Positions 13,031-47,836 of a stretch of DNA of 64,000 nt are shown here, one piece after another. The notes under the pieces are model-generated. The model was not told the origin of the DNA. It saw only the letters and a list, made by a program, of their open reading frames with translations, and did not search any database. The DNA is taken from positions 4,237,501-4,301,500 of the forward strand of contig JAFFSR010000351.1 in the NCBI GenBank assembly GCA_017163975.1, written 5' to 3'. How positions within the stretch are numbered: position 1 is the first letter of the stretch; each line of letters starts with the position of its first letter. The stretch comes from Anastatus disparis. Lineage: Eukaryota; Arthropoda; Insecta; Hymenoptera; Eupelmidae. Position numbers and translations under genes: made by a program.

Positions 13031-13211
13031 TCCAGGGTCAACTATGGATATAATAACACCTATAAACATGATAAGTAATTTTAATAAACGAAATTATTTT
13101 AGTAGCAATTTTATTGTTTTGAAAAAAATGATGAGTGGTCATCTATCAAAAATTAATTTTAAATAAAAACTAAAATTATGAACCTTAAAATCAAACAGTA
13201 CGAAGTGCCTT

Positions 13212-13893
13212 AGTAGAGAGACCTGTTCTATAGCGCACCCAGACGGCGCCAAAAAAATTTTCGGTCTCTCTCGACGCCTTTCCCTCGCGCGTTATAGACA
13301 TGAAGGTTCCCCCTCCCCCGGGCAAGATGGACATGGGTTTCCTCTCCCTGGGCAAGATGGACATGGGTTTCGTGACTTAGGAGAGCGACGAAGAGATTTC
13401 TTTCCCCTCTCGGCGCTATAGCTCACATCGAGCTGTAGACGCCCCCCTCTCTAACTTACCGTACAGGGGCCTGTGAGTGTTGAAGAGAGCAAGGGAGAGA
13501 AGTATACTTACCCCTCTTGGCGCTATAGCATCCATCGGCGTATAGACATCGCTCTCTTACTTACCGTACAGCCCGTAAGCGTTGGGCTTTGTGGACAGCA
13601 GCGAAGAGTACTGGTTACCCCCTCTTGGCGTTATAGCTTACATCGAATTATATGAATTTACTTAAGAAAAATTTAGTTAAAAGTTTTAAATATTAATAAA
13701 AAGTTTTAGAAAAAGATAAAATATGAAAAATATTTAAGAAAATTTATGAGAAAATTATGTTAAAAATTTAAAAAAATTTTAAATAATATAAAAGAATGTA
13801 TATGAAAAAATTTTAATATAAAATTAAATTGAATGAATTTTGGTGGGTCATAGTGTGAAGTAGATGAAAAAAGGTTAGGACGGGTATGATACA
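13212..13893 (+). repeat. Polinton left terminal inverted repeat
   Basis: Mirrors 33,950-34,630 with only scattered differences. The outer half is GC-rich. It has two copies of a unit with GGGCAAGATGGACATGGGTT (from about 13,320). Then come longer diverged units, each with GGCGCTATAGC or GGCGTTATAGC and CTTACCGTACAG. The inner half is AT-rich. Three ACTTAC motifs (13,454, 13,506, 13,559) read as GTAAGT splice donors on the minus strand, pointing out of the element. A 60-codon frame at 13,473-13,655 is only a by-product of the repeat. Confidence 0.93.
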
Positions 13894-14201: not shown

Positions 14202-17200
14202 TTATTCTTTATAACCGAATGGTAAAGACGTACCATTTTGAAAAAAGCGACGTTTAGTTAGAACGACAGAGCATGTTTTTTGTTCGTCCTTTGTAATTAT
14301 TTTAAAATTTTCCGTACGCTTGATACTACGAAATGATAATTTGATTGTGTTAATTTCTTTATTTATTAATTTTTTAACACTATCAAAATTAATATGTGCA
14401 GTATTTTGGAAATTCAATCGAATGCCTTTAATTTTACAGCATTCGAAAGTATTTCCAGATGGTGAAATCCCTTGAAAGGCATAAAACTTTGGGCCACCGC
14501 TCAGGTATTCTGAGATATAAGAACCATCTTCATAAGAAGACAGTTCATCGGTCATTTGCCCTAAGAAATTACCTGTTTCGGGTGTATATTCACCTTGCGT
14601 ACCGGTTGTGACGAAAATACATGAATCTGTATCGCAATATAATAAACGCTTCCCTAGTTTTTCTAAGTACGAGTATAAAACAAGGCGCGCTTGAGCAGTG
14701 GTATAAGCGGCGATTACTACATTAGTATGGCTTGAACTTTTTATAGCGTCATCTTTAAATACCCAATTGACGCATAAAACATTTTCATTAATAAGAAGTA
14801 ATCCTGTTACTTCTTTATCTTTAGCCATAATAATATTTAAAAGTTCTTGTCTGCTTTTGACAAATTCAGTGTGAGGTAAATTATCGCGTTGACCAAATTT
14901 ACCCCAAAACGAATTTAAGCAGAGCTTTGCCACTGCTCGCAGCCCTGAATTTTTCTCGATTTTATTGTAATCGAGAGAAATTCCTTCCTTTGTTTTATAT
15001 TCATTTATGTAATTAGTTTTTGATTGGTCGTCTTTACATTCAGACGGCCAACCACTCGCTTCCTGTTTAATTTTTTTAGAAAACAGTTGATGTAGTCTTT
15101 AAAAAGACCGCCATCGCCGTTTTCATCTATTTGTATAATTTGGTATTGCCAAATTACAAAAATATTTAAAATTATGTACCCTTTTTCTAAGGCGACCTTT
15201 ATTTCGTCTGAAACCCAGGTACCTAAAAGAGCACGCTCTTTAACATTTTTATGTTTGCAAGATCTAAAATTTTGCTCTTCGCAACACGTTTTACAAAGAG
15301 GAAATAATAATTTTTTTTCTGATTTGACCGGTAGAACAGGTATATATAAATTTTGAGGAGGTAAAATTAGACATTTGACAAGTCCATTTACCTCAGCAAA
15401 TTTTTCATAATTGTTCCCTGTCAGCTGTAAACATTCACCACCAACATAAATTTGTGGATGGCCTGTAGGGAATTTACCTGTTTTACAGATATACGGATAT
15501 AATGAACATATATCCGTATACCTGATTTTTTTATCATTTTTTACGGTGTACGAAGTTACAAAATTTTCGGTACGTCCACCAAAGAATGCGTCTCTAGGGT
15601 CCAACTTAACGTTGGATAAAAGTGAATGGTTTTTTAAATATAGTGATATTTCGGGTTGCGCTATTTTCATTTTATTGAAATCGCATTCCCAAATCCATTC
15701 TACTTTATACCCGCTAGCACGTATTTTTTGTATTTTTTCCAGTGTTTTTTTATAGCATTCGTGCATCGGTCGCCTGAATGAATCTCTCGACTCATAGTTG
15801 TGAGCAAAACACTTTTTACACCCGTGAGCATAACATCCTTGAAATTCAAATACTGTTCCTTTGAATTTCGGGGATGAAGCTTCGTTTATATCCACTGGTA
15901 AAAAACCATCGACTTTATAGCTCTCTGGTAAAACATGTTCCCGCGCTCTTGCCGCGTGAATGATTTTTTTCCCTAATACGTGTTCACGCCATAATAACCA
16001 TTCGTTTGATTTTTTCGAATGGTTATCGGCAAGTCTGTAGCCCTTTGTGGGTATAAGGCCGATCGTTTTTTCCTGTAAAAAGTTTTGCCTGTATAGGACA
16101 GAGCATGCAGAAGCTATAGTCGTAGCCTGTGAAAAAGGGCATAAATTTCCTTTTTCTAGAAATATATTCCTAAATACAACGCACGCTCGCCGTAAAATAT
16201 TTACATCCAGGGTACAATATTTTATGATTTCTTTTTGGAAATCGAATTCGTTACATGTTTTTAAATTTTCGTCGTACCACTGATAAAATTTCTCTCTCTC
16301 ACCAACACTCATTGTATCGGGCGAGTAATATTTTGCTGGTGGTAACGGGCTTTTATATTTTTCATTTTCTTTCGTATTAAATAAATGTGGAAAATACCCT
16401 TTAACATTACCTTCAGGCAAGCCGAATGCCTTTGGTAAATCACTTAATCTCATGTTAAAATAATTTATCGAATCAATAAATCGCGTTTTATGAACAGACA
16501 TTAAAATAATATTTCTACCGTTTAATATTATTTTAGGTTTGATATTATAATTTTCTTTTAAAATACTGTTTAAAATAAAATGCGCATCAAATGCTTTGGC
16601 ATTATGTGCGATGCATATTGTATTTTTAAAAATAGAATTTGGGCGAACAGCTAATTCTATTAAATTTTTAACGGGGTTCTTTTTAAATATAAATTCCCGT
16701 ATACCACAAAAACTGCAATGAGTTGTGAGAGATTCAATATTAATACAATTGTCGCACACTTGTTGTGCTACACATAAATTTACAACATGTAAATTTACGT
16801 TAGCACTGTATAGATCGTCTTGCCTCGTCTCGAAATCATAGAATATAAATCTATTTTCCGGCATATTTTCATTATGCGTGCTTTTTTTAACAGCTAGCGG
16901 TTTAATGTAGCACAATTCATTGTAATTATGTATAATTTTACATCGATTACAATAAAATGTACCACATTTGTGCTCTGGTTTATTTTTTTTTCTATTCATG
17001 TTTTTAATCACACATTCATCGCAATTGTATATGACAGCACACACACTACTGTTCCGATCGTAACTTCCGTTTTGTAAATGTCTCGCGTAACACGCTTGAC
17101 TCACAAAACTTCTGTTACAAGCGGAACAGATTATATTTTGATCTCCACACACACATGCTGGTTTGGAAAAACAACAAGAACAAATATCGCTACATTTATG

Positions 17201-18691
17201 CATATCTTTTCGCTCATATGCTTTGTTACATTTTTCGCAAAACTTTGGGAGTCCAGCTTGCTGTAAAGATTTTATAAAAGCAAAATGTTCTGGTGGACCC
17301 TTAAAGTATAATAAATTGATTTCTTGTGGTGTTGGTATATTATTATCGTTATTATTTATGAAAAATTCCGAAATACGTCCATCGTAGGATATTTGTGACA
17401 TATTATTCGCAAATTCGTTATTTTTTCTTATAATTAAAGCGATATTTTTTTTTTGCGCGAGATATTTTTGAAAAATTTGAATCTGTTCCATATGACACCC
17501 ATTTTCAGGTATATCATTTAGGTCAATTCCAACTTCTTTTAAAATATCAAGTGCACATTTTTTTTGAAAAGCACGTCGTGAATCGATCTTTCTTTTCCAA
17601 TGTTTTAGAAAATTAGTATTTTTTGGGTCGGATTGCAACAATAAATATGCCAATCCGACCGCTATTGCTCGTGGCAAACAAAGATTATCATCATTTTCTA
17701 TTGTAATGATAGAGCGCTTTCTTTTAGCGGCTTCTTTGTTTAAGGGTTTACCTAAATTTCTAGCCCCGCCTTGAATTCCTTTTACTAAGGTAATATCAAG
17801 AATTAAATTATTATTGATGTTAAATTCCGCATTGCTTTAAGCAATTTGAAAAATAACATCAAATAATTCTTCGGGGCGAAAATCTCTTACGTATTTTAAA
17901 CGCATCCAACCGGGTCCACGAGTAAATTCATCGCTCGTGATATACGCCGTAATATAATCGAAGGGATTTTCGGTTATATCTATAATAAATGCGTGTATTT
18001 CTGCAATCGCTTCTTGCAGCCACACTAAAGGGTTGGTATTTGGTGGGGGCGTTTCAATACGTATAGTTAGGCGCTCGCCACGCACGCCGTAACGTTGCGA
18101 ATTCCCACCCGGTTGTCGAGAAATTACAGCAAACTTTTGCGCATTTCTACCACCACCTACCTGATTATATAAATTAACCTCATTTTCTCTATTATTTACA
18201 CATGAACAATATTCAAATTCAATATCACTGTCATTCATCACACTATCACCCAATATCGCTTCATTACTTAAAAACGGTGATTCTTCGTTACCATCATTCA
18301 TACTCTCATCACTTTCTGATATAATTATATTATTTTCGGAATTTAAACATTCACTCTCGCTACTTGTATCGCTAATACTATCATCGCTCTCCGGTATTAT
18401 TATGTTATTTATAATTATTTTTTTATTATTTATATATATATTATCACTATCGCTATCGTTAATACTCTCATCGGTCTCGGGTATTATTATATTTTTTCTA
18501 ATTATATTATTATCAATATATCTATCGCTATCGCTATCGCTACCGCTATCGCTACCGCTATCGCTTATATAATTAACATCTGCTTCGTTGTTGTTGCTGT
18601 CATCATCGCTTTGACTCGAATACACTTGTCTCAGCAATTCTAGGGCGTTAACTATATAAAAATAAAAAGAGACAAAAATAAATATTTTCAT
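14202..18691 (-). pseudogene. Polinton protein-primed DNA polymerase B, broken by a stop and a frameshift
   Basis: Family B polymerase that would copy the element from a protein primer. Three open blocks follow each other: 18,691-17,840 (acidic Ser/Asp/Asn-rich head, then a conserved block from about 18,080), 17,836-15,005, and 14,933-14,202. The first two share one frame and are parted by a single TAA at 17,837-17,839. The last is in another frame, and the change lies at an A7 run near 15,070-15,080. Visible domains: a Cys-rich zinc-binding region, exonuclease motifs FYDFETR and AHNAKAFD, palm motif A DICSLYP, motif B KLCLNSFWGKFG and motif C YCDTDS. All catalytic residues are kept, so the damage is recent. 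A splice acceptor at 18,651 (TTTTTATATAG) suggests the true N terminus may come from an upstream exon. The apparent start at 18,691 would give an unlikely hydrophobic leader. Confidence 0.92.
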
Positions 18692-18838
18692 GTCAACTTA
18701 TTTTTATTATTTTTAATTTGTAAAATAACGCCTTTTCTTAAAATAAAGCTAAAAATTAATAAAAGAAAAAAGAATTTACGTAGAAAAGTTAATATACAAA
18801 CGTAAATGTTTGCGTTGAATATACTACTTTTGATACCT

Positions 18839-19949: not shown

Positions 19950-21286
19950 TTAGGGTTCAGACACCCCACGAAAACATTCGGAAACCCGTAGCAATAAAGC
20001 TCGTAATTCGTGTAAAGGGAGTTGAAGCACGTGGTTTTCGTCGTTATTTTTTAGAGTTTCTAAGAACCATCTACGTTCGCGCGCACGTGGTGCCCATTGA
20101 ATGCTTTTCCAATGTTCAGGAATTGCAACACCTAGTTCCTCGTTATTGCTTATATCTTAAAAATATTTTTTGTTATTTAAAAAAAACTAAATATTATAAA
20201 TAAAATGATTTTTAAAAAAAACTTACGATTGTTGACATCGTTGTCCGCACAGCTGTTTTGGTTGAAGCGAGTGGGTACCAGGTTGCCTTGCTCGTTCACG
20301 TAGTTAGTCTGGTCGAATGGATTGTGGTGCGGTCGATAAAAGAAATCGTTGAGTACTCGCGATCTATCCACAGCTGAAGATGATTCGTCGTTTGGCACTA
20401 TAAACTGATGATCACGAATTGGCGAAGGATCATGTGGTAGTGGTGCAACATCAAATGGTACGTTGAATCGAATTTCATCTTGTTGTTGTTGTTGTTGTTG
20501 TTGTTGGTTTTCTTCTTCTTCTTTTAACACATTTTTTGCTATATCTACGTGCGATCTTGTTGATTGATCGTGTATATCCAGGAAGCCTCCGGCTATAAGG
20601 GCCGGGGTTATCCTCTGACCCTCATAGTTAATAGAGTCGTCCGAATCGGGTATCGGACTACTCGCTGCAAACCGTTCACCATTCGCGAAAATGTTCGCGA
20701 CTTCCTCATCATCTTCGTTCAAACTTTGGTCTGCATTATTCACGTTATGGTCACTACCAGCACCACTACCACTCAGCATATTTTCCTCCGAGCTGCTCTC
20801 TTCCACACTTTCTTCACTATGTTCCTCCACACTATCTTCTTCAGAATCTCCCCACAGAAGGGCGAAAAAAGCTAAAAAAAATCACAAATTTATTAAATAA
20901 CTTTTAAAAACACAAACACTTATATCACTTTTTTTTTTAATCACTTTTTATCACATACCGTTGGCTTCATTCAGGCCTGTTATTACTTCTGCGAACAGGG
21001 GTGAATCACGTAACCCACGATTCACAATAACCGTCCCCGCTATTAAAGATGCGTGCATCGAAGAATAAAATCTGCTCCGATACAAAGATCTAATGTCACG
21101 CGCCGTGAGATTGGTAAGAAGTCGTCGTAATTCACGACGCAAACCGTTAATCGACATCGCGCGCAATGTCAACCGTCTTCTCGTTAATTGCTCGCCCACG
21201 AGCGGCGTACGGTTACGATTATTTACAAACGAATCTGTAGCAACTACACTGCTACGTAAATTACACCACTCTTGACGCGACGACAT
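19950..21286 (-). CDS. Polinton acidic protein, three spliced exons, unknown function
   Basis: Exons 21,286-20,959, 20,871-20,227 and 20,155-19,950 join in frame (1,179 nt, 392 residues). Donors are GTATGT and GTAAGT; acceptors are TTTTTTTTAG and ATTTTTAAG; both introns are short (87 and 71 nt) and phase 1. The first exon encodes an Arg-rich helical domain (MSSRQEWCNLR start, RRELRRLLTNL, LTARDIRSLYRSR). The second begins FFALLW, then turns strongly Glu/Ser-rich with a poly-Gln run of nine residues and a proline-containing region. The third encodes a compact ending with EHWKSIQWAPRARER and LHELRALLLRVSECF. I do not recognise the family. The position beside polymerase B and the acidic tract recall the polymerase's own head region. 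Intact frames across two clean introns suggest a real gene. A terminal-protein or regulatory role would be a guess. Confidence 0.75.
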
Positions 21287-25931: not shown

Positions 25932-26571
25932 ATGTAAGTGTAAAATGAGTCATTATATAGCATACTACGAAAATCAAATCGGTAGCGGAAACGGTGTACG
26001 CAACGTTTTCGCCGGTTCGCGCTGGCAGCGCGGTTCAGGTCTTGGAAGTTTTTTTTCAGGTCTGGCCAGAACTATTTTACCTTTTGTATCGAAAGGGTTA
26101 AGAGCAGTTGGTAAAGAAGCTCTGCGTGGTGGAATAAGAGTACTTGAAGATATAGGCGATAATATTAGTTTCAAAGAATCTATAAAAAATCGATTTGCAG
26201 AATCAAAAGATAATTTAAAAGAAAAAGCAAAAAATAAAATTAACGAAATGTTAATGAGCGGGTCGGGATATAAAAATCCTGTTTTCAATTCAGCAATACA
26301 GTCTTTGAAGCGACGTTCGATTGAAAGCATCGCAAACTCATTAGCAAAAAAGAGAAAAAAAAGAAGAAAAAGAAAAAGTGGCAAAAGGAGAAAAAAAACT
26401 TCAGCAGGTAATAGAAAAACGCTGCCAAGTGCTTTGGCGGAATGCTTTCTCATAGAGCTCTTTGAGTTTCATTAATTTTTTTATATTTATTTAAATGTGA
26501 TTTTAATATTAAAAAATTGTCTAACATTAATATTTACTCATATTGTACTTTATAAATTTCGAAAATTTATG

Positions 26572-27701
26572 CTACCCTAGCGGAAAAAAAAATGCAGAAA
26601 ACAGTAAATATCCGAAAATATCAGAAGAAAACAGAAGAAAACTGATAAAAACTGCAGAAAACAGAAATTAACTGTTGAAAAATGTCGAGATTGAGACAAA
26701 GACAACAGTTATCTTCTGATTTCTTCTGATTTCTTCAGTTTTTATCAGTTTTCTGCAGTTATCTGCAATTATCAACAGTTTTATTCATTTTTCAACGTTT
26801 TTCTTCATTTATAAAAGCAATTTGAAAAGTGAAGAAATCCGGAAAAAACTGAAGACAACTGTTATATTCTGAAAATAACTGTTGGAAAGTGAAGAAAACT
26901 GAAGAAAACAGTTATATTCTGAAAATAACTGTTGAAAAGTAAAGAAATCTGAAGAAAACAGTTATATTCTGAAAATAACTGTTAAAAAGTGAAGAAAACT
27001 GAAGAAAACAGCTATATTCTGAACAAAACTGTAAAAAAGTGAAGAAATCTGAAGAAAAAAGGTAATAACTGTTTAAAAATAAAGTAAAATGAAGAAAATT
27101 GGAAAAAAAATATTTTTTTACGAAAAAAGTGAAGAAAACAGAAAATAACTGAAGAAAACTGATAATATCGGCAGAAAACGGAAGAAAACAGTTAATAACT
27201 GTTGAAAAATGAAGAAAAGTGAAGAAAATTTAAAAAAAAAATATTTTCTTATATAAAAAGTGAAGAAAACAGAAGATAACCAAAGAAAACTGATAATATC
27301 GGCAAAAAACTGAAGAAAACAGTTTATAACAGTTAAAAAACGAAAAAAAGTGAAGAAAATTGAAAAAAAAAAAAAAAATTTTCTTATATAAAAAATGAAG
27401 AAAACAGAAAATAACTGAAGAAAACTGATAATATCGGCAGAAAACTGAAGAAAACAGTTGATAACTGTTAAAAAACGAAGAAAAATGAAGAAAATTAAAA
27501 AAAAATTTTCATTTTTATATAATAATAACTAGAAAACAGAAGATAACTGAAGAAAACTGATAATATCGGCAGAAAACTGAAGAAAACAGTTGATAACTGT
27601 TGTCTTTGTCTCAATTCCGACATTTTTCTGCCGTTATCTTCTGTTATAAACTGTTGTCTTCAATTTTCTTCAGTTTTCTTCTTTTTTTTCCGCTAGGGTA
27701 G
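26572..27701. mobile_element. 1.1-kb non-coding element rich in AGAAAACTGAAGAAAACAG
   Basis: Terminal inverted repeat CTACCCTAGCGGAAAAAAAA against its complement. Inside, units of about 130 bp repeat the phrase GATAATATCGGCAGAAAACT (27,160-27,570). Complementary stretches near 26,700-26,800 and 27,590-27,690 let it fold. It is a satellite-like MITE nested in the larger insertion. Confidence 0.75.
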
Positions 27702-27837
27702 CTGTTTGCTTTTTCAACATTTATAATTTATTTTAAATTATCAAGTAATACAAAAAAATTTGTTCTATTGAAAAAATGATATAATGTAGTAATAAAAAGA
27801 ATGATGACAACAAAATTTCTAATCTTTATAAAATGCA

Positions 27838-28282
27838 ATCATATTTATATGATCATATCTCCACAACTTTTAATCTTTTGGTGATATGTCATTTTACAGC
27901 TGTCACTGGGTAGCGAATGATGCACACTATTCAAACTAGGTTCACACCTTTTGTACAATCTTGTTCCTCTATTTTTTATGTATATAGTGAATGTGCCACC
28001 AATGCTCCAGTAGATATTTCTATAAAACGTAAATTTTTACATGGATAAAAGTTCGGAAATTTTATCCATGTAAAAATTTTCGTTTTATAGAAATATCTAC
28101 TGGAGCATTGGTGGCACATTCACCATATACATAAAAAATAGAGGAACAAGATTGTACAAAAGATGTAAACCTAGTTTGAATAGTGTGCATTATTCGCTAC
28201 CCAGTAACAGCAGTAAAATGACTTTTCAAAAACATTATAAAAAAATTAAAAGTTGTGGAGATATGCTCATATATAAATACAG
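27838..28282. repeat. Long hairpin, arms about 210 bp
   Basis: The arms are near-perfect complements; for example TCCAGTAGATATTTCTATAA pairs with its complement 60 bp beyond the centre at about 28,052. The loop is only a few bases. Small sequence differences sit mainly in the outer arms. Confidence 0.85.
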
Positions 28283-29604
28283 TTCATGTTTATGGCTCTA
28301 TAAAAAAAACTACTCTATGAATACCAATTTTCAATAGCTTCCCGTCTAGTTATACAAAAACATAGATGGTATACAAAATTTGAAGCAAATCCATCGAGTA
28401 ATTTTCGAGATCTAACTGGTTAAATAAGTAACATTTTCTTTTCAAAATTTCTTTTTCAGAATTTTAAAAATCCTCTAAAATTAAAACTACGCTATAAAAA
28501 TCAATTTTTGAAAATTTCCCTTCTTTTGGCAGTCGCAAATAATTTCCCTGCAATTTTTAGAACAAAACTATCGAGTACTTTACGTAGAATAAAAAAAAAT
28601 AAGAAAAGAAGAATCGAAATTTTTTTTTAAATCTTTAAAATTCTCTAAAATTGTAACCACGCTAAGAAAATTAGTTTTCAAAAGCTTATTTTTTTCAGAC
28701 AAAAGCGAATTAATTGTATAAAAATTTTGGAGAAAATTTATAGTATGGTTTACGCAAAATAGAATATAAATGAAAAATAAAAATTTTTTTGAAAATTTTC
28801 AAAGTGCTCTAAAATTAAAACTGCACTGAGAAAATTAGTTTTCCAAAGCTTGTTTTCTTCAGACAGTAGCGAATAAATTGCATACAAATTTTGGAGCAAA
28901 TCTATCAAATGGTTTTCGTAAAATAGAAAAAAATTAAAAATAAAAATTTTTAAAAAAATTTTAAAAATGCTATAAAATTAAAAGTGCGCTAAGAAAATTA
29001 GTTTACAAAATTTTTTATACTTTTGGCAGTCGAAATTAAGTTTCATACAAATTTTCGAACAAATTCTTTGAGTAGTTTACGTAAAATACAAAAAAAATGA
29101 AAAATCGAAATTTTTTAAAAATTCTTAAAATGTTTCTTAAAAAAAACTACGCTAAGAAAACCAATACTCAATAGCTTCCGCACCAGTTGATCGAAAAATT
29201 GAATTGTATGGAAAATTTGAAGTAAATCCATCGAGTAGTTTTTAAGATTTTATTGGCTTAATAAATAGAAACATTTTTTTTTTAATTTCAAAATGCTCTA
29301 AAATTAAAACTAAGCTAAGAAAATCAGTTTTTAAAAATTTATTTCATCCGGGCAATCACAAATAATTTCCGGGCAAATTTTGAAGCAAATTCATCGAGTA
29401 GTAAACAAAAAAAAAACCAAAAAACGAAAAATCGAAATTTTTTTTTTTTTTTTTTTTTCAACTCTAAAATGAAAATTACGCTAGAAGAACCAATTATCAA
29501 TAGCTTCCCAGCAAGTTAGTCAAAAAACTAAATTCCATGCAAAATTAGAAGCAAATCCATCGAGTAGTTCTCGAGATACAGTTTACTAACTGAATCCATA
29601 CATC

Positions 29605-29636
<32 letters not shown>

Positions 29637-29872
29637 TACAGACATTTTCTGGAAACCACTTTTTTCGACTCACCGAGTTCAAATATGTACAAATTAATGA
29701 AAAAATAGAAAAAAATTTTTTTTATCGATACAATGCTTTCTCTATGAGAAAGCAAAAAGAGACGTCGCTCGAGCGGTGTAATTAAGAGAAAAAAGAAAAC
29801 CACTGTTCGCCGTCGTAAGAAAAAAATTTCACGCAGACAAAAGTCAAACGATATTTTTAACTAAAAAACATC

Positions 29873-31198
29873 ATGGCTTTTTTACACAGTCATAGTAATG
29901 AGTGTCTTAAATCAGAGCTGTCATTATTTACTCTCCCACACACTCAAACATCTATTGAATCAAATGAAATAGTACATTATAAGCCCGTATCATCGTTAAA
30001 CGACAATGCACCTTTAGAATTTGTAATATCCAGCAGTGGAGAGAGTTACATTGATCTTGCTCATACTATGTTAAGCTTACGCATTCAAATACTACCGAAA
30101 GATGCAGAAAATAATGAAAAAGTCGGGCCTGTAAATTATATATTACATAGTTTATTTCAACAAGTAGATGTATTATGTAATAATAAATTAGTATCGCCAC
30201 CTAATAATGCCTATCCATATCGTACATATATAGAATCTCTTTTAAATTACGGGCGTGCAGCTAAAGATACTTATTTAACTACCTCTCTGTGGTATACAGA
30301 CACTGCAGGTAAAATGAATGCAAAACCAGATGCTTTGCAGGCTGAATGTAATAAGGGTCTAGTAGAACGTTGTAAACATACTTACGCTGGTAAAATAGTT
30401 GATCTACTCGGTCGCCTGCATTGTGATTTATTTAACCAAGATCGTCATCTTTTAAATGGCGTAGAAATAAGATTACGATTCGTAAGATCGAAAGACGCTT
30501 TTTGTCTTATGGACTCTACGAATGACGCAAATTTCAGTATTCACATCGTTGAGGCTACGCTTCTCGTAAGACGTGTAAAAATAAGCCCCAATATTCTATT
30601 AGCCCATGCTAATGCACTTTCAAAAACAACGGCTAAATATCCCTTGACAAGAGTAGAAGTAAAATCTATAACCATGCCTGCTGGTATTTTAGGTGATACA
30701 CTTGACAATGTTATATTAGGACAAATACCTAAACGAATAATTTTAGGTTTTGTAGATAATCGAGCATTTAACGGGGATCGTACATTAAACCCATTTAATT
30801 TTGAACATTTTAACATAAATTTTTTGTCTTTATATATAGACGGTGTAACCGTTCCGAGTATACCGTTACAACCTATTTTTACTGGTAATAATAAGCTTTA
30901 CGTTGACGCTTGTCATACGATTTTCTCTGGAACTGGCATACACTTTGCGAATGAAGGTAACGAGATTACACGTACAAATTATCCCGACGGATACTGCCTT
31001 TTCGCTTTTGATTTGACACCCGATTTATCAGCAAATTTTTGCGATCATTGGAATCTCGTTCGTCACGGCTCTATACGCATAGAAGTGCATTTCGAAACAG
31101 CTCTCACCAAAACGATAAACTGTATAATTTACTCGGAATACGATAATGTATTAGAGATCGACTCTTCAAGACAAGTTATAGTTGACTTTAACTCATAA
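29873..31198 (+). CDS. Polinton major capsid protein
   Basis: 441 residues, intact. The N terminus (MAFLHSHSNECLKSELSLF, then LPHTQTSIESNEIVHYKPV and SGESYIDLAHTMLSLRIQI) is characteristic of the Polinton major capsid protein, a double jelly-roll protein expected to form the hexagonal capsomers. Further conserved-looking blocks are PYRTYIESLLNYG, LDNVILGQIPKRIILGFVDN and a C-terminal GYCLFAFDLTPDL. The ATG lies eight bases after the core-protein stop, so both were probably on one transcript. The insertion upstream may have cut this gene off from its promoter. Family assignment is from motif recall. Confidence 0.88.
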   Translation: MAFLHSHSNECLKSELSLFTLPHTQTSIESNEIVHYKPVSSLNDNAPLEFVISSSGESYIDLAHTMLSLRIQILPKDAENNEKVGPVNYILHSLFQQVDVLCNNKLVSPPNNAYPYRTYIESLLNYGRAAKDTYLTTSLWYTDTAGKMNAKPDALQAECNKGLVERCKHTYAGKIVDLLGRLHCDLFNQDRHLLNGVEIRLRFVRSKDAFCLMDSTNDANFSIHIVEATLLVRRVKISPNILLAHANALSKTTAKYPLTRVEVKSITMPAGILGDTLDNVILGQIPKRIILGFVDNRAFNGDRTLNPFNFEHFNINFLSLYIDGVTVPSIPLQPIFTGNNKLYVDACHTIFSGTGIHFANEGNEITRTNYPDGYCLFAFDLTPDLSANFCDHWNLVRHGSIRIEVHFETALTKTINCIIYSEYDNVLEIDSSRQVIVDFNS

Positions 31199-31379: not shown

Positions 31380-32328
31380 ATGGAGTTAATTATAGATATT
31401 CAACCTATTTTCGATAAAGAGTACAAAATTATACCTAAAGAAGTTGCCGTAATGTCTCTTCAAGGAGACGCGTATTCACATTGGATTATAAAGCCACCTC
31501 ACCAATTCTCACAGCTTAATAGTTATTTACAACGGGCAAATAACTCGTTAACGAAGTTTGTGCACGATATAGAATGGTTTTTAAGGTGATACAACGCTTA
31601 AACATGTGCAGGAAAATTTAAAAGCCTTTATGAAAAGTGCTTCTCATATTTACGTTTCCGGTCGACCCAAAGTCGATTTTTTAACGGACATTTTAGGACG
31701 AAAAGTAATTAATTTAGATGATTATGAAGTGCCCAGTTTCGCAATGATGAATTCTAAATATAAAGATGAAATTTTAACCTCGTGCGTTTATCATAAAACA
31801 AAATCGTGTTTCTGGGTAAACTGTGCAGTGCATAAAGCAGCTTTGTTAAAAAAATGGCTTAACGATTTGAAAATAAAATTCAGAGATTCCATCACAAAAG
31901 AAGTTAAAGAAAATAATAAACCACGCACTTTGAACTTTGACAAAGATAAGGATGAAGGTGAAATTCTTGAAATTTTGGAAATATATGCCTGTGAATATCG
32001 TAAAAATAATCCAGTATGCGATGACAGCGATGAGGAAAACAATTCAACATCATCTTCATCGACAATATTAAGTACGTTATCGAATTATCTTGCTAAAGAT
32101 CCCGAAGAAAACAAAGAAAATGAACCATCAAATATAAAAGATAAAGAAGAAGATAGTCAAAATAATACAACTGTTGGATTGAGCCCTATCAAAGAATCAC
32201 CAAGTAAGAAAGATGAATACATGTCAAATATTACAGGCGATTCAACACCTTCCAACACTAACAGTAGGGGTAGTACCAGCAGATCGAATCCCGCGAATAT
32301 TGACGAGACCGACAGCATTAGTAATTAA
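31380..32328 (+). pseudogene. Polinton-associated protein with acidic Ser-rich tail, one frameshift
   Basis: The first part (31,380-31,589) starts MELIIDIQPI and holds KEVAVMSL and HWIIKPPHQF. The second (31,585-32,328) continues in the +1 frame with SASHIYVSGRPKVDFL and a Cys/His-containing block (CVYHKTKSCFWVNCAVHKAA). It ends in an Asp/Glu/Ser/Asn-rich tail. The change lies at the T5 run before TGA 31,587-31,589. I recall this I-D-x-Q...KE-x-A...H-x-x-x-KPP layout from uncharacterised proteins of arthropod mobile elements and viruses, but no activity is known to me. The last 116 bases overlap the protease frame. Confidence 0.6.
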
Positions 32329-32764
32329 TACAGATGAAAGTTATCGGTCTGGGACTCATTGGGTAGCATTATACATAGACAAAGAAGGTATAGGAACCTT
32401 TTTTGACAGTTACGGCCAACCACCTCAATCACCGTATTTTCGAAGCGCTTTAAAGAGAAATTGCAGAAAATATACCTGGAATACCAAATGTTTACAACAA
32501 CCAGAGTCTACAGTTTGCGGTAATTACTGTGTTGTGTTTTTACATTATATGTGTCAATTCAATTCATTACAGAGTTTTTGTATATTGTTTACTAATAATT
32601 TACAAGAAAACGACACAATAATTTTATACTATTTTAATCAATTAGTTAAAAAAAAAAAAAACATTATTCGATGTAACAAATTAACTCATGTTTTAAATAA
32701 AAATATCATAGGCGGTAGTTACTGTATTCAATCTTGTACGACGAAACTGTATTGTTTAAAATAA
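32213..32764 (+). CDS. Adenain-like cysteine protease
   Basis: 183 residues. Adenovirus-type proteases cleave capsid and core precursors during maturation. The triad is present: H49 in GTHWVALYID, D65 in FFDSYG, and C106 in VCGNYCVVFL. A Gln just before the Cys (Q95/Q96) may serve as the oxyanion residue. The upstream part has VPADRIPRI and ALVINTDES, usual for the family. The ATG at 32,213 is the first in frame and overlaps the preceding gene. An A13 run near 32,650 could hide a frame change in the C-terminal 40 residues, which look less conserved (Lys run, then Cys-rich end). Likely intact. Confidence 0.88.
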   Translation: MNTCQILQAIQHLPTLTVGVVPADRIPRILTRPTALVINTDESYRSGTHWVALYIDKEGIGTFFDSYGQPPQSPYFRSALKRNCRKYTWNTKCLQQPESTVCGNYCVVFLHYMCQFNSLQSFCILFTNNLQENDTIILYYFNQLVKKKKNIIRCNKLTHVLNKNIIGGSYCIQSCTTKLYCLK

Positions 32765-33098
32765 ATTCAAAATTTTTAAAATCTTGTGACTTTTTATTTG
32801 TATTTCTAACCCTCTACCCTAATAATAATAAAAAATTTCTTTTAGGATAAACCCAAATTCATAAAAATATATATTTTGAAAAGTTACTTTCAAACATAAC
32901 CAGTAAATTGTATACAATAAATACCAGATGTAAGCATAAACTTTTTTCTCCCACCATCTTTTTACCATTATTATATATATTTCAATGTTCGAATCTTTCT
33001 TAAAAAATTTTCTTCTCATTATACTTTCATCTGTAGCCGAGTCAACATCTTAGTAATTTTAAATTTCTTCTTCAAATTTTTCTAAAAAATCATCGAAA
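32765..33098. other. AT-rich gap, nothing recognised
   Basis: Between the protease and the six-exon gene. It should hold the promoter of the latter, but the GGCGG-type motif is absent. Confidence 0.5.
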
Positions 33099-33886
33099 AT
33101 GGAAAATTTCAGACAAACAATGGTAAGTTATTTTTCTTTTTTTTTTTGTAAATAAAATTTATAATTAAAATTTAATTTTTGTTTTTTTTTTTCAGGTACG
33201 AAGACGCGTAATGCGCTTACAACGTAGGAAGCTACAGTCGAAAAATTTAGTCGAAGAAATTAAGGACATTAATAATGCTTTCTGGGTATGTATGTTTTAC
33301 TTTAAAATATTTTTAAATTTTAAATCATTTTTAAAATATTTATTTTTTTTTCAGAAAACACATTCTAACCAAGATCATCAGCCTAGGCTTCGGGTAAAAA
33401 CACCCGGAGAAATCAACGCGACATATGACCTAGAGGTATGATTTTATTTTTATTAATTATATTAATATCTTTTTTAATTATTATATTCCTTTTTTCTTTT
33501 TTCAGCCAATCACACCAGGCATACGCATACATACAATTATACCGGTGACACCGTTGATAGAGACTGTGAGTATTTTGACATACATGTTATGAAATAATAT
33601 TTTAAAATCATTTCTTAAATATATTTTTCTTTTCTTTGATTTCAGATCACAGCAAACCGTTTACTAAAATTTTATAAAGAAGTCGTTGACAACATCGACG
33701 ACGAAATCAACAAGCCCTCTTCTGTAAGTTTTGTTTTTTTAATTGCCTATCATCATCATCATAAAATAATTAAATATTTATTAAAATTTTTTTTCATTTT
33801 AGGCTGAAGCTCTGGATGAGGAGAAATTCAGGTTTAATAACTTAAAAAAATTCAGCAGAAGATTTATTCAAAGACTAAATGCATAA
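33099..33886 (+). CDS. Small Polinton gene of six in-frame mini-exons
   Basis: Exons 33,099-33,122 (24 nt), 33,196-33,285 (90), 33,355-33,435 (81), 33,506-33,565 (60), 33,646-33,723 (78) and 33,803-33,886 (84 with stop) join into 138 codons. Donors: GTAAGT, GTATGT, GTATGA, GTGAGT, GTAAGT. All five acceptors are preceded by strong T/C tracts ending CAG or TAG. All introns are 69-80 nt and phase 0, and every exon is a multiple of three. The protein starts MENFRQTM, then a basic stretch (VRRRVMRLQRRKLQSK), an acidic helix, a proline-containing middle (PITPGIRIHTIIPVTPLIET), and a charged helical end. No known domain. It is the last gene before the right inverted repeat, only about 60 bp away. 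The splice signals and unbroken frame make it very probably real. The function is unknown; a DNA-binding or regulatory role would be a guess from the basic N terminus. Confidence 0.85.
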
Positions 33887-33949
33887 AACATGTAATATTT
33901 TGTTTTCAATATATGTATTAAAATTATTTATTCTGTTTTTATTTTACCC

Positions 33950-34630
33950 CGTATCACACCCATCCTAACCTTTTTCATGCACTTCACACTACGACCCACC
34001 AAAATTCATTCAATTTAATTTTATATTAAAATTTTTTCATATACATTCTTTTTATATTATTTAAAATTTTTTAAAATTTTTAACATAATTTTCTCATAAA
34101 TTTTCTTAAATATTTTTCATATTTTATCTTTTTCTAAAACTTTTTATTAATATTTAAAACTTTTAACTAAATTTTTCTAAAGTAAATTCATATAATTCGA
34201 TGTAAGCTATAACGCCAAGAGGGGGTAATCAGTACTCTTCGCTGCTGTCCACAAAGCCCAACGCTTACGGGCTGTACGGTAAGTAAGAGAGCGATGTCTA
34301 TACGCCGATGGATGCTATAGCGCCAAGAGGGGTAAGTATACTTCTCTCCCTTGCTCTCTTCAACACTCACAGGCCCCTGTACGGTAAGTTAGAGAGGGGG
34401 CGTCTACAGCTCGATGTGAGCTATAGCGCCGAGAGGGGAAAGAAATCTCTTCGTCGCTCTCCTAAGTCCCGAAACCCATGTCCATCTTGCCCAGGGAGAG
34501 GAAACCCATGTCCATCTTGCCCGGGGGAGGGGGAACCTTCATGTCTATAACGCGCGAGGGAAAGGCGTCGAGAGAGACCGAAAATTTTTTTGGCGCCGTC
34601 TGGGTGCGCTATAGCACAGGTCTCTCTACT
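33950..34630 (-). repeat. Polinton right terminal inverted repeat
   Basis: Complement of 13,212-13,893, ending ...GGTCTCTCTACT. Contains GTAAGT at 34,279, 34,332 and 34,384 on the plus strand (pointing outward), the paired GGGCAAGATGG units, and the GGCGCTATAGC units. The 6-bp target copy TGCCTT follows at 34,631. Confidence 0.93.
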
Positions 34631-34635
34631 TGCCT

Positions 34636-35024
34636 TTAAGAGGAGGTCACGTATCTCTGTCCTTTTCTAATCAAAGAAATGATTTTTTTACAAAAACTAC
34701 TAACTTTAGCAAAAAATGAAGAGAAAGCCGCATCTTGTATCAAAAAAAGCAATATTTTCTTTGATGAAAAAGAATTAATTTTATTGCTTCGTTTTCAAGA
34801 AAACCTTGAAAAACGAAATTGTCCACCCTAACCTCTATGATTTAAGTTTTTCAAGGTTTTCTTGAAAACGAAGCATTAAAATTAATTCTTTCTTATCAAA
34901 GAAAATATTGCTTTTTTTTATATGAGATGCGGCTTTCTCTTCATTTTTTGCTAAAGCTATTAGTTTCTGTGAAAAACTCAATTCTTTAATTAGAAAAGGA
35001 CAGAGATACGTGACCTCCTCTTAA
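34636..35024. mobile_element. TTAA-flanked hairpin MITE abutting the Polinton
   Basis: TTAA at both ends, ends GAGGAGGTCACGTATCTCTG against the complement. Arms of about 170 bp pair with few differences around 34,830. The Polinton's target duplication ends on the first T of this TTAA, so the Polinton entered the junction of an older hairpin element. A related element lies at 50,477-50,877 (both contain AGAAAAGGACAGAGATAC). Confidence 0.88.
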
Positions 35025-42351: not shown

Positions 42352-42489
42352 AATAAATTTCCATTAAATGAAGCCTCTTCCTTAAATAATCAACAAGATC
42401 CCTGTAACATATTGACTGTGCAAAATGGAAACAGCAATAATACTAATAATAATGAAGATGCGACTGCAAAGACTACAAAAAATAACTTA
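42352..42489 (+). pseudogene. C-terminal coding fragment, left half
   Basis: Open from 42,352 (after TAA) with an Asn-rich reading (SSLNNQQDPCNILTVQNGN, NNTNNNEDATAKTTKNNL). It continues at 47,804-47,836 (VSIDNTNENL, stop) if the palindromic element and one TTA are removed. It is probably the end of a protein once carried by the 16.6-kb element. Family unknown. Confidence 0.5.
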
Positions 42490-45400
42490 GGCTGTATTCA
42501 CAGTAGCAAGGAAGTTCGGCAATTCGAAATTCCACCTGTGATAAATTAATAACGGTAAAATTTGCTCCAGTATGCTGAATCGTGGTTCATGATTATTCTT
42601 GAATCAACCATACGATACAAAATAACAATTTGATATTTTTTTATTTGTCAAGTATTTTATATACAATAGGAGTAAATACGTATAACAAGCCATATAGAGA
42701 TACCGAGTAAACATTTCATTATTACACAGTAGCTTTTTTGTGACCGTTTTATTAATTATAAAAATACTTAATATCAACCGAAGATCGTTCTAGCAAATGT
42801 AATATGCATGCGAAAAGAGCTTGCATAAATTATTCACACTCGGGAAAAATCCCGTGGTTTTAAATCCGATTGCTACAACTAAGCGTTTAAAAGATGTATC
42901 CTCGATATACTTATATTTTATACAAGTTCTCAGAAATAGCCCTAGCGTCAATCGCATTAGACGTGCATGTATGATACAATATAACCTATCTATTTACACG
43001 TGTTTTCTTGACTCGGTATAATATTATATACATAGTATGATACGACATAACCAAGCTATTTACACGTGCATTCATGATTCGGTATACGATTATATATAAC
43101 CTGGTATACGCGAATCAATAGCTAGGTATAAGCTTACAGTAGTATCCTCGGTATGCATATACGTATAAATAACCAAGCTATTAACACGCGCACACACACC
43201 TCGGCATAGTAATCTCAGTACGCATACACGCGCAAATAACCAAGCTATTTACATGCGCATACTCACCACGGTATGAACAGCTCGGTACACTAGCATATTA
43301 ACCACGCTAAATACACATCACGGTATAAACAGCTTGGTATACTAGCATATCAACCACGCTAAATACACACCGTGGTATAAACAGCTCGGTATACTAGTAC
43401 ATTAACCGCGCTAAATATACACCGCCGTATAAACAGCTCGTTATACTAGTATATTAACCGTGCTAAATATACACCGCGTTATAAACAGCTCGGTATACTA
43501 GCATATTAACCATGTTAAATATATACCACGGTATAAATAGCTTGGTATACTAGCTTATTAACCACGCTAAATATACACCACGGTAGAAACAGCTCGGTAC
43601 ACTAGTATGCCGCGCTATTTACCCGCGTATACATGCCTCGCTATACGAGCATACTTGTATAAAAATAGCTCGGTATACTAGCATATTAACCACGCTAAAT
43701 ATACACCACGGTATAAACAGCTCGGTACAATAGTATGCCGCGCTATTTACCCGCGTATACATGCCTCGCTATACGAGCATACTTGTATAAAAATAGCTCG
43801 GTATACTAGCATATTAACCACGCTAAATATACACCACGGTATAAACAGCTCGGTACAATAGTATGCCGCGCTATTTACCCGCGTATAGATGCCTCGCTGT
43901 ACGAGCATACGTGTATAAAAATAGCTCGGTACACTAGCATATTAACCACGCTAAATATACACCACAGTATAAACAGCTCGGTACAATAGTATTCCGCGCT
44001 ATTTACCCGCGTATACATGCCTCGCTATACGAGCATAGACAACGAGGCATATGTGTATAAAAATAGCTCGGTATACTAGCATATTAACCGCGCTGAATAT
44101 ACACCGCGGTACAAACAGCTCGGTACAATAGTATGCCGCGCTATTTACCCGCGTATACATGCCTTGCTATACGAGCATACGTGTATGAAAATAGCTCGAT
44201 ATACTAGCATATTAACCACGCTAAATATACACCACGCTAAAAACAGCTTGGTACAATAGTACGCCGCGCAGTTCACCCGCGTATAAAGCCTCGCTATACG
44301 ATCATAGACAACGAGGCATACGTGTATAAATATAGCTCGGTATACTAGCATATTAACCGCGCTAAATATACACCTCGGTATAAAGAGCTCGGTACAATAA
44401 TATGCTGCGCTATTTATCCGCGTATACATGCCTCGCTATACGAGCATAGACAACGAGGTATACGTGTATAAAAACAGCTCGGTACAATAGTATGCCGCGC
44501 TATTTAGCCGCGTTTACATGCCTCGCTATACGAGCATATACAACGAGGTATACGTGTATAAAAATAGCTCGGTATACACGTATATACACCTAGGTTAACA
44601 CATATGAACGCACGTATATTACGTGCGTCACGTTGATAATTTGATACTCGTCTCAAAGTTCGTCTGCATGTGTTCCTAGATGCATCATATATGTTCTCAT
44701 ATGAATGCGTGCAATCAAACTTTAATATTTATTTAGATTAAGAAAAGGAGTAGAGAAACGTTTTATTTTTTTCCTCTGTGATAATTTATTTAGTTCCTCT
44801 GTGATAGTTTATTGTAAGAAATTGATGAGTTTTCATTTGTTTCTTAGTGAATATGATATTGATATACACAAGTTAAATTATGTTGTAAATATACTGTATA
44901 AAGCATTATATTTCTGATTTTTTTTTCAAATAATTGATAAAATTTTTGCAATATTCAATAAATTATACTTTTATTTGAAAATATAAAATATTGAACTAAT
45001 TTAATTTTAATATAGCATTAAAATGATGAAATAATTAATTGGAAAAACAAATGGATATTTTAATTGATAATTTTTTTTGTTAAAACAGTGAATTAATTTT
45101 ATTGAATCAATCTTCGCTACATTTAGTAAGTCAAATATTTATTTGAAAATACAAAATATTATTTGATTCAGTTACTATATGCATATTGATGTAATGAAAT
45201 AAGCAATTAGAAAAACAAATATGCATTTGAATAAATAAAAAATTTTTTTAAAACAATAAATTAATTTTATTCAACCAATATTTGTGATGTTTCGTAGAAT
45301 CAAATATTTATTTTAAAAAATGAAATATTCATTTGACTCTATTAAAATATTTGTATTAATATAACAAAATATTTTATGTGCCGCCCGCACCTAAGGGATT

Positions 45401-47800
45401 TCATTGATTCAATTAAGCCTTACTTAATCCAAATAAATTTTTTTCTCAGTGTAGTATCATCTAATATCACCATTTTGTCAATTATTTGAAAAAAAATCGG
45501 AAATATAATGCTTTATACAGTATATATACAAAATAATTGAACTTGTGTATATCAATATCATAACCTCTAAGAAACAAATGAAAACTCATCAATTTCTTAC
45601 CATAAACTATCACAGAGGAACTAAATAAATTATCACAGAGGAAAATAAAATAAAGCGTTTCTTAACTCTTTCTCTTAATTTAAATAAATATTAAAGTTTG
45701 ATTGCACGCATTCATATGAGAACATACATGATGCATCTAGGAACACATGCAGACGAACTTTGAGACGAGTATAAAATTATCAACGTGACACACGTAATAT
45801 ACGTCCGTTCATATGTGTTAACCTAGGTGTATATACGTGTATACCGAGCTATTTTTATACACGTATACCTCGTTGTCTATGCTCGTATAGCGAGGCATGT
45901 AAACGCGGCTAAATAGCGTGGCATACTATTGTACCAAGCTGTTTTTATACACGTATACCTCGTTGTCTATGCTCGTATAGCGAGGCATGTATACGCGGGT
46001 AAATAGCGCGGCATATTATTGTACCAAGCTGTTCATACCGAGGTGTATATTTAGCGCGGTTAATATGCTAGTATACCGAGCTATATTTATACACGTATGC
46101 CTCGTTGTCTATGCTCGTATAGCGAGGCATGTATACGCGGGTAAATTGCGCGGCATACTATTGTACCGAGCTGTTTATACCGTGGTGTATATTTAGCGTG
46201 GTCAATATGCTAGTATACCGAGCTATTTTTATACACGTATGCTCGTATAGCGAGGCATGTATACGCGGGTAAATAGCGCGGCATACTATTGTACCGTGCT
46301 GTTTATACCGCGGTGTATATTCAGCGCGGTTAATATGCTAGTATACCGAGCTATTTTTATACACATATGCCTCGTTGTCTATGCTCGTATAGCAAGGCAT
46401 GTATACGCGGGTAAATAGCACGGAATACTATTGTACCGAGCTATTTATACTGTGGTGTATATTTAGTGCGGTTAATATGCTAGTGTACCGAGCTATTTTT
46501 ATACACGTATGCTCGTACAGCGAGGCATGTATACGCGGGTAAATAGCGCGTCATACTATTGTACAGAGCTGTTTATACCGTGGTGTATATTTAGTGCGGT
46601 TAATATGCTAGTATACCGTGCTATTTTTATACAAGTATGCTCGTATAGCGAGGCATATATACGCGGGTAAATAGCGCGGCATACTAGTGTACCGAGCTGT
46701 TTCTACCGTGGTGTATATTTAGCGTGGTTAATAAGCTAGTATACCGAGCTATTTATACCGTGGTATATATTTAGCATGGTTAATATGCTAGTATACCGAG
46801 CTGTTCATAAAGCGGTGTATATTTAGCGCGGTTAATATACTAGTGTAACGAGCTGTTTATACGGCGGTGTATATTTAGCGCGGTTAATATACTAGTATAC
46901 CGAGCTGTTTATACCGCGGTGTGTATTTAGCGTGGTTGATATGCTAGTATACCAAGCTGTTTATACCGCGGTGTGTATTTAGCGTGGTTAATATGCTAGT
47001 GTACCGAGCTGTTCATACCGCGGTGAGTATGCGCATGTAAATAGCTTGGTTATTTGCGCGTGTATGCGTACTGAGATTACTATGCCGAGGTGTGTGCGCG
47101 CGTATTAATAGCTTGGTTATTTATACGTATATGCATACCGAGGATACTACTGTAAGCTTATACCTAGCTATTGATTCGCGTATACCAGGTTATATATAAT
47201 CGTATACTGCATCATGAATGCACGTGTAAATAGCTTGGTTATGTCACATCATACTATGTATATAATATTATACCGAGTCAAGAAAACACGTGTAAATAGA
47301 TAGGTTATATCGTATCATACATGCACGTCTAATGCGATTGACGCTAGGGCTATTTCTGAGAACTTGTATAAAATATAAGTATATCGAGGATACATCTTTT
47401 AAACGCTTAGTTATAGCAATCGGATTTAAAACCACGGGATTTTTCACGAGTGTGAATAATTTATGCAAGCTCTTTTCGCATGCATATTACATTTGCTAGA
47501 ACGATCTTCGGTTGATATTAAGTATTTTTATAATTAATGAAACGGTCACAAAAAAAGCTACTGTGTAATAATGAAATGTTTACTCGGTATCTCTATATGG
47601 CTTGTTATACGTATTTACTCCTATTGTATATAAAATACTTGACAAATAAAAAAATATCAAATTGTTATTTTGTATCGTATGGTTGATTCAAGAATAGTCA
47701 TGAACCACGATTCAGCATACTGGAGCAAATTTTACCGTTATTAATTTATCACAGGTGGAATTTTGAATTGCCGATCTTCTATGCTACTGTGAATACAGCC
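42490..47800. mobile_element. 5.3-kb palindromic Harbinger-like element
   Basis: Ends GGCTGTATTCACAGTAGC and GCTACTGTGAATACAGCC, target duplication TTA (42,487-42,489 and 47,801-47,803). A TWA target and GG start fit PIF/Harbinger. The arms 42,490-44,938 and about 45,476-47,800 are close complements over 2.4 kb. Each arm holds a tandem array with units of about 130-140 bp: CGCTATTTACCCGCGTATAC, GCCTCGCTATACGAGCATA, and AGCTCGGTATACTAGCATAT. No transposase. The centre (44,939-45,451) is a terminal piece of the CACTGAG family. Frames such as 44,145-44,429 merely read through the array. Confidence 0.85.
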
Positions 47801-47803
47801 TTA

Positions 47804-47836
47804 GTCTCAATAGACAATACAAATGAAAATTTATAA
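47804..47836 (+). pseudogene. C-terminal coding fragment, right half
   Basis: Eleven codons ending at TAA, in frame with 42,487-42,489 across the palindromic element. See the left half. Confidence 0.45.

What the first reader, a model, noticed from the sequence alone, without database searches (positions are those of the whole stretch)
33099..33886. Polinton gene made only of in-frame mini-exons
Six exons of 24, 90, 81, 60, 78 and 84 nt, all multiples of three, are joined by five phase-0 introns of 69-80 nt. Any internal exon could be skipped without a frameshift, so one small gene could yield many protein variants. Polintons are usually drawn with few or no introns; a transposon gene cut into symmetric mini-exons is unexpected. 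It recalls the micro-exon effector genes of some parasites and gall insects, but no homology is implied.
Basis: partly seen in the sequence, partly recalled or inferred. Interest (0 to 1): 0.92.

Follow-up and report, generated by a model that had tools for sequence, protein, structure and literature searches.

The report
Conserved six-exon gene in Polinton transposon
A virus-like transposon repeated through an animal genome (likely a wasp-like insect) carries a small gene cut by five short introns, and dozens of its copies keep the same six exons, so the host is predicted to splice it and it likely makes one small basic protein.

Summary
Exons of 24, 90, 81, 60, 78 and 84 nt at 33099-33886 join into a 138-aa frame through five GT-AG, phase-0 introns of 69-80 nt. 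A gene finder returns this model as the optimum (score 48.6; 150 shuffles reach at most 7.4, 802 flanking windows at most 16.3). The gene lies inside a Polinton with both ends. The host genome was searchable and 80 further copies were read: 29 are intact with all ten splice dinucleotides, 51 have no indel in any exon, and none shows the region as one open frame. Two subfamilies (about 69% protein identity) share the exon lengths, with overall dN/dS 0.19. A second gene of the element (minus strand, three exons) is also spliced in many copies by its exon-by-exon matches. The Maverick papers seen here report no introns, so conserved introns in two genes are a real surprise. My reading: a host-spliced, likely constitutive gene for a small basic, predicted nuclear protein. 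No RNA was available.

The parts
33099..33122 (+). exon 1 (24 nt, 8 aa, ATG start)
   Evidence: A-B dN/dS 0.05
33123..33195 (+). intron 1 (73 nt, phase 0)
   Evidence: GT..AG; GT kept 65 of 68, AG 66 of 68 copies; length 59-79 in intact copies
33196..33285 (+). exon 2 (90 nt, 30 aa, net charge +5.7)
   Evidence: A-B dN/dS 0.11
33286..33354 (+). intron 2 (69 nt, phase 0; its retention stays in frame)
   Evidence: GT kept 66 of 68, AG 65 of 68; retention product 161 aa
33355..33435 (+). exon 3 (81 nt, 27 aa)
   Evidence: A-B dN/dS 0.28
33436..33505 (+). intron 3 (70 nt, phase 0)
   Evidence: GT kept 68 of 68, AG 66 of 68
33506..33565 (+). exon 4 (60 nt, 20 aa; least constrained)
   Evidence: A-B dN/dS 0.57
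33566..33645 (+). intron 4 (80 nt, phase 0)
   Evidence: GT kept 63 of 68, AG 65 of 68; carries a 391-nt insertion in copy L016
33646..33723 (+). exon 5 (78 nt, 26 aa)
   Evidence: A-B dN/dS 0.16
33724..33802 (+). intron 5 (79 nt, phase 0)
   Evidence: GT kept 64 of 68, AG 62 of 68
33803..33886 (+). exon 6 (84 nt including TAA, 27 aa)
   Evidence: A-B dN/dS 0.09
32972..32979 (+). TATATA runs upstream, possible core promoter (inferred)
   Evidence: motif positions 32972 and 32974; function untested
33917..33922 (+). ATTAAA, possible poly(A) signal (inferred)
   Evidence: motif position; function untested
32213..32764 (+). adenovirus-type cysteine protease of the Polinton, directly upstream
   Evidence: Pfam Peptidase_C5 E 1.3e-4; upstream in 19 of 19 elements fetched
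31380..32328 (+). PW-like gene, in two frames in this copy
   Evidence: parts lie in one frame in other copies (spacing); gene name recalled
29876..31198 (+). major capsid protein gene (function name recalled)
   Evidence: 940 homologs, named ones F54H12.2-like in Hymenoptera among the 120 listed
19950..21286 (-). second spliced gene: exons 21286-20959, 20871-20227, 20155-19950; introns of 87 and 71 nt, both phase 1; 392 aa
   Evidence: exon-by-exon matches in many copies
13212..13793 (+). left TIR
34050..34630 (-). right TIR
13206..13211 (.). target site duplication TGCCTT (left)
34631..34636 (.). target site duplication TGCCTT (right)

Best explanation
This is a genuine gene of a Polinton (Maverick) family, cut by five short introns that the host spliceosome is predicted to remove, giving a single 138-residue basic protein that likely acts in the nucleus. 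Shown: the six-exon layout, its place inside the element directly after the capsid and protease genes, its repetition in dozens of copies with the splice sites kept, and protein-level constraint between two subfamilies. Inferred: that splicing is mostly constitutive, because every exon is constrained between subfamilies and the introns are very short. Inferred: that the protein binds DNA or RNA, from pI 10 and an arginine-rich N-terminus that is nearly the same in both subfamilies. Inferred: introns can persist because Polintons copy themselves as DNA and never pass through a spliced RNA intermediate, so nothing purges them. A likely by-product is a splicing gate: keeping intron 1, 3 or 4 truncates the protein and keeping intron 5 changes its last 27 residues, so full product would be made only where splicing is complete.
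For: Gene model is the ab initio optimum, score 48.6 vs at most 7.4 in 150 shuffles and 16.3 in 802 flank windows. Run separately on 80 other copies, the gene finder returns the identical exon lengths in 26, including 9 of 9 intact subfamily-B copies. 51 of 80 have no gap or insertion in any exon. 29 of 80 plus the window are intact with all ten splice dinucleotides. Splice dinucleotides kept 650 of 680 in 68 usable copies; control GT kept 74% in introns, 75% in exons, 68% in flanks; control AG 72% in exons, 60% in flanks. A vs B (189 pairs): dN 0.185, dS 0.965, ratio 0.19; subfamily-B copies differ from the window by about 0.2, 0.13 and 0.37 at codon positions 1, 2 and 3. PW and protease lie upstream in 19 of 19 elements fetched, capsid gene in 17 of 19. 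A spliced-CDS search of the genome gives hits that stop at the exon borders. 138 aa, pI 10.05, 26 K+R, no Cys.
Against: No transcript evidence. Intron AG control dinucleotides (3 sites) are kept as often as splice dinucleotides (95.6%). Introns are T-rich, so the 26-fold higher indel rate in introns (463 vs 20 events) is partly homopolymer slippage. Within subfamilies constraint is weaker (dN/dS 0.29 in A, 0.46 in B), with exons 3 and 4 at 1.5-1.8 within B on few changes. No homolog in the protein, Pfam or PDB searches, so the function is a guess from composition; the best PHROG match is weak (E 0.01).
Confidence: 0.68

Rival explanations
1. Variant generator: internal exons are skipped in different combinations, giving up to 16 related proteins.
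For: All 16 combinations are in frame. Exons are short and much richer in GC than the introns; PMC9225289 (passages) links such GC contrast with exon definition and cites an alternatively spliced exon flanked by 87- and 80-nt introns. PMC6142364 (passages) ties skipping to short exons. Exon 4 is the least constrained (dN/dS 0.57).
Against: In-frame skipping follows automatically from phase 0. Short introns normally favour intron definition; the same survey of skipping ties it to longer flanking introns. All exons are constrained between subfamilies. No copy among those inspected is a processed skip isoform.
Confidence: 0.12
2. Splicing gate: intron retention is the regulated event, as in the P element (recalled), so the protein appears only in some tissues or stages.
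For: Retention of introns 1, 3 and 4 truncates the product (18, 66, 93 aa) and of intron 5 replaces its last 27 residues; retention of intron 2 adds 23 residues in frame.
Against: Most retained introns truncate any gene, so this is not specific. No expression data.
Confidence: 0.15
3. A host gene captured with its introns by the Polinton, recently enough to keep host architecture.
For: GC3 of the two spliced genes (0.381, 0.397) lies outside the range of nine unspliced coding segments (0.238-0.280). Bracoviruses carry intron-rich genes of wasp origin (PMC2646287, passages).
Against: No host homolog found for either spliced gene. Present in both subfamilies at the same place, so capture, if any, is old. 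Higher exon GC may simply help exon recognition beside 10-19% GC introns.
Confidence: 0.2
4. Chance chain of splice-like signals in AT-rich DNA.
For: AT-rich, T-rich DNA yields many acceptor-like sites.
Against: Score controls, conservation of exon lengths and splice sites and codon-position pattern.
Confidence: 0.01

Closest known systems
Polinton/Maverick elements
   Same: TIRs, 6-bp target duplication, PolB, rve integrase with chromodomain, C5 protease, capsid gene; the spliced gene is inside them.
   Different: Vertebrate intact Mavericks have intronless ORFs, in line with earlier work (PMC8097293, passages); a survey used a prokaryotic gene caller because such endogenous viruses 'do not contain introns' (PMC10120064, passage). 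Here two genes carry conserved introns.
Schistosome micro-exon genes (MEG)
   Same: Short exons, mostly multiples of three (PMC10526429, passages).
   Different: MEG exons are mostly 15 bp with introns of 0.1-5 kb and encode secreted proteins; here introns are 69-80 nt and the N-terminus is basic.
Aphid bicycle genes
   Same: Many small exons of one shared phase; proteins that diverge fast (PMC9168663, passages).
   Different: Bicycle exons are phase 2, about 17 per gene; here phase 0, six exons, in a transposon.
Ginger1 DNA transposons
   Same: DNA transposon genes with 1-4 introns, nearly all GT-AG (PMC2836005, passages): introns in a DNA transposon are not new as such.
   Different: Transposase gene with few introns, not an accessory gene made only of mini-exons.
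Adenovirus transcription units (recalled)
   Same: Related dsDNA lineage that relies on host splicing in the nucleus.
   Different: No sequence relation of this protein to any adenovirus protein was found.

Membership tests
Polinton/Maverick | terminal inverted repeats of hundreds of bp | tested here: met
   13212-13793 and 34050-34630, 5 mismatches in 581
Polinton/Maverick | 6-bp target site duplication | tested here: met
   TGCCTT on both sides
[quoted passage not shown]
   Pfam DNA_pol_B_2 E 6.7e-32 and 3.5e-6 on two pieces; the gene is interrupted in this copy
Polinton/Maverick | retroviral-type integrase | tested here: met
   rve 1.6e-14 plus Chromo 1.5e-7
Polinton/Maverick | adenovirus-type cysteine protease | tested here: met
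   Peptidase_C5 1.3e-4, just above its cut-off
Polinton/Maverick | major capsid protein | tested here: inconclusive
   440-aa ORF with 940 homologs, named ones F54H12.2-like; that this is the capsid protein is recalled, no fold test run
Polinton/Maverick | packaging ATPase | tested here: inconclusive
   no Walker A motif in an ORF above 47 aa in this copy; motif scan only, the copy is degraded and other copies were not scanned
Polinton/Maverick | intronless genes (as reported for vertebrate elements) | tested here: not met
   two genes with introns; a reported trait, not a membership criterion
Schistosome MEG | exons multiples of three | tested here: met
Schistosome MEG | long introns (0.1-5 kb) | tested here: not met
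   69-80 nt in the window
Schistosome MEG | secreted, with signal peptide | tested here: not met
   best 11-residue hydropathy near the N-terminus -0.56, basic N-terminus; no dedicated signal-peptide program was run
Aphid bicycle genes | internal exons of phase 2 | tested here: not met
   all phase 0
Aphid bicycle genes | sequence relation to bicycle proteins | not tested
   no bicycle profile was used; Pfam gave no family for the window protein

The most novel reading that the evidence does not exclude
Insect Polintons carry an overlooked layer of spliced, fast-evolving accessory genes (here a six-mini-exon gene and a three-exon gene) that work like the early regions of adenoviruses: host splicing switches them on in the nucleus and, through symmetric exons, can deliver alternative forms against host defences. 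Because endogenous viruses are annotated with prokaryotic gene callers, this layer has been missed across the group.
Probability: 0.2. Interest if true: 0.85.

Novelty: new variant of a known kind. Interest (0 to 1): 0.6.

Why it matters
Mavericks are described as intronless in the papers seen here, and a large survey predicted such genes with a prokaryotic caller. If insect Polintons keep spliced genes under selection, published gene lists would be incomplete, and just for the fast-evolving genes most likely to meet the host. It also shows that a DNA-replicating, virus-like element can keep introns over long divergence, giving a direct setting to test how such elements use the host spliceosome. 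With many near-identical copies in one genome, junction reads would settle the matter in ordinary RNA-seq.

Tried and rejected
Homologs of the 138-aa protein: none with E <= 1 in 5.8 billion proteins (9 candidates), none in Pfam for the window protein (two sub-threshold chance-level names among four copies) or PDB; weak PHROG only. Homologs of the 392-aa protein: none with E <= 0.1. Relatives by capsid or polymerase in viral contigs and genome contigs: none confirmed. Rfam on the window: none.

Exons as repeats of each other and introns as copies of one element (introners): no significant pair (exons 5-6 p = 0.05, introns 2-4 p = 0.06, uncorrected, of ten pairs each).

'Exons evolve faster than introns': raw distances between subfamilies suggested it (exons 0.12-0.30, introns 0.06-0.12; Fisher p 0.0002-0.012 in three pairs). 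I rejected it as a claim because model-corrected distances reverse it (exon 0.426, intron 0.591 between window and L072). A higher synonymous rate than in three neighbouring genes remains unexplained.

Processed (intronless) copies: L041, L068, L069 and L070 looked like candidates but are deletion derivatives.

A training segment was read in the wrong frame (28 stops); onward uses the corrected set. Six-frame regex for ATPase: nothing in a sizeable ORF.

Full report
What is there. The introns run GT..AG and are phase 0, 69-80 nt long, 10-19% GC, against 29-45% GC in the exons. A gene finder that was not given the exon borders returns the same model as the optimum for 32765-34049: score 48.6, while 150 dinucleotide shuffles average 1.8 and reach at most 7.4. 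In 802 windows of the same size in flanking host DNA the maximum is 16.3, and 13.1 for models with four or more introns; inside the element, away from this gene, such models reach 20.5. The best uninterrupted ORF in the region scores 4.3.

Where it lies. The element runs from 13212 to 34630, with TIRs that differ at 5 of 581 aligned bases and a TGCCTT target duplication. It has a family B polymerase, an rve integrase with chromodomain and a C5 protease, and a capsid-type gene with 940 protein homologs, the named ones among the 120 listed being hymenopteran (that this is the capsid protein is recalled). The polymerase is interrupted in this copy by a stop codon and a frameshift, and the PW-like gene is in two frames, so this copy is decaying while the mini-exon gene is intact.

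Other copies. The host genome (939,413,245 bases in 399 contigs) could be searched; the protein matches it exon by exon (222 matches, 150 of 466 candidates scored). I fetched 80 copies. Run on each copy separately, the gene finder returns the identical exon lengths in 26 of 80. After lifting coordinates, 51 of 80 have no gap or insertion in any exon, and 29 of 80 plus the window have the full 138-aa frame and all ten splice dinucleotides. Among the intact ones the introns vary in length (intron 1 59-79 nt, intron 5 71-86, and intron 4 74-471 because of one 391-nt insertion). None of the 80 has an open frame that covers 80% of the region, the largest overlap being 338 nt.

Splice sites. In 68 usable copies (12 dropped for poor cover or under 70% identity) the splice dinucleotides are kept at 650 of 680 sites. 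Control dinucleotides: GT in introns 74%, exons 75%, flanks 68%; AG in exons 72%, flanks 60%; AG in introns 96%, but on three sites only, so that one control does not separate. Indels number 20 in exons and 463 in introns, 26-fold per base; part of that is T-run slippage.

Selection. Intact copies form subfamily A (21 with the window) and subfamily B (9; 68-73% protein identity to the window). Between them dN is 0.185, dS 0.965, ratio 0.19 (Nei-Gojobori, 189 pairs, not independent), and per exon 0.05, 0.11, 0.28, 0.57, 0.16, 0.09. Subfamily-B copies differ from the window by about 0.2, 0.13 and 0.37 at codon positions 1, 2 and 3. Within subfamilies the ratio is weaker, 0.29 in A and 0.46 in B, with exons 3 and 4 at 1.5 and 1.8 within B on few changes. 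The gene evolves faster than its neighbours: protein identity of the window to five B copies is 98% for the capsid gene, 93% for the protease, 91% for PW and 69% for this gene.

It belongs to the Polinton. In 19 elements from both subfamilies and three outliers, PW and protease lie upstream in 19 of 19 and the capsid gene in 17 of 19.

No retrocopy. Searching the genome with the spliced coding sequence gives 194 matches (40 of 132 candidates scored), and in the part listed they stop at or within a few bases of exon borders except one, which is a copy with a 49-nt deletion in intron 2.

A second spliced gene. On the minus strand, exons 21286-20959, 20871-20227 and 20155-19950 with two phase-1 introns encode 392 aa. 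Genome matches break into about 1-111, 110-325 and 323-392 in many copies (186 matches, 105 of 443 candidates scored), also on the same contigs some 12-16 kb from B copies, at 52-59% identity, with 84 nt between the first two blocks in several of them. Both spliced genes have GC3 near 0.39, against 0.24-0.28 in nine unspliced coding segments (Fisher p 0.007 and 8e-7).

How it likely works. The protein is basic (pI 10.05), has no cysteine in the window copy and no signal-like N-terminus, and its first 26 residues are nearly the same in both subfamilies. I infer a nuclear, nucleic-acid-binding protein made from a mostly constitutively spliced mRNA. Introns can persist because the element replicates as DNA (established knowledge of Polintons). 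Retention of introns 1, 3 or 4 truncates it, intron 5 changes the end, and intron 2 alone stays in frame; a splicing gate is therefore possible. Exon skipping is possible but unsupported.

What is known. In the passages I saw, vertebrate Mavericks show no introns in intact elements, in agreement with Kapitonov and Jurka (PMC8097293), and a survey states that endogenous viruses do not contain introns (PMC10120064). Another element paper looked for and did not find GT-AG introns (PMC12721341). Seven literature searches listed no paper that I could recognise as reporting spliceosomal introns in Polinton genes; the library lacks most subscription journals, and supplements could not be read. Schistosome MEGs and bicycle genes resemble it in exon symmetry only.

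Limits.

Noticed in passing
window 19950-21286, minus strand: Second spliced Polinton gene (three exons, 392 aa, acidic middle with a poly-Q run), no homolog in the protein database, conserved exon by exon in many genome copies down to 52-59% identity.
   Followed up: partly
window 33099-33886 against loci L072-L081: Synonymous change is about twice to three times that of the neighbouring capsid, PW and protease genes (38% of conserved degenerate codons changed vs 12-17%; Fisher p 2e-7 in one pair), with equal GC3 in both subfamilies. Cause unresolved.
   Followed up: partly
window 14202-18697, minus strand: Polymerase gene interrupted by an in-frame stop between two long ORFs and by a frameshift in an A run: the copy is decaying.
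   Followed up: no
window 31380-32328: PW-like gene lies in two frames here but in one frame in other copies (spacing of the two parts).
   Followed up: partly
window 26480-29860: Purine-skewed tandem repeats and a 187-nt palindrome (91% complementary arms) sit where an ATPase gene might be expected; no ATPase ORF seen in this copy.
   Followed up: partly
genome G000 (places): At least two further Polinton families with capsid proteins 67-68% identical and mostly intact frames (28 of 96 scored matches).
   Followed up: no
L016, intron 4: A 391-nt insertion lies inside intron 4 of an otherwise intact copy, leaving exons and splice sites untouched.
   Followed up: no
window 56873-61816, minus strand: Retroelement with reverse transcriptase, RNase H and integrase domains at higher GC than its surroundings.
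   Followed up: no
window 42485-47805: Large nested inverted repeat, arms over 1 kb at 97% identity, outside the Polinton.
   Followed up: no
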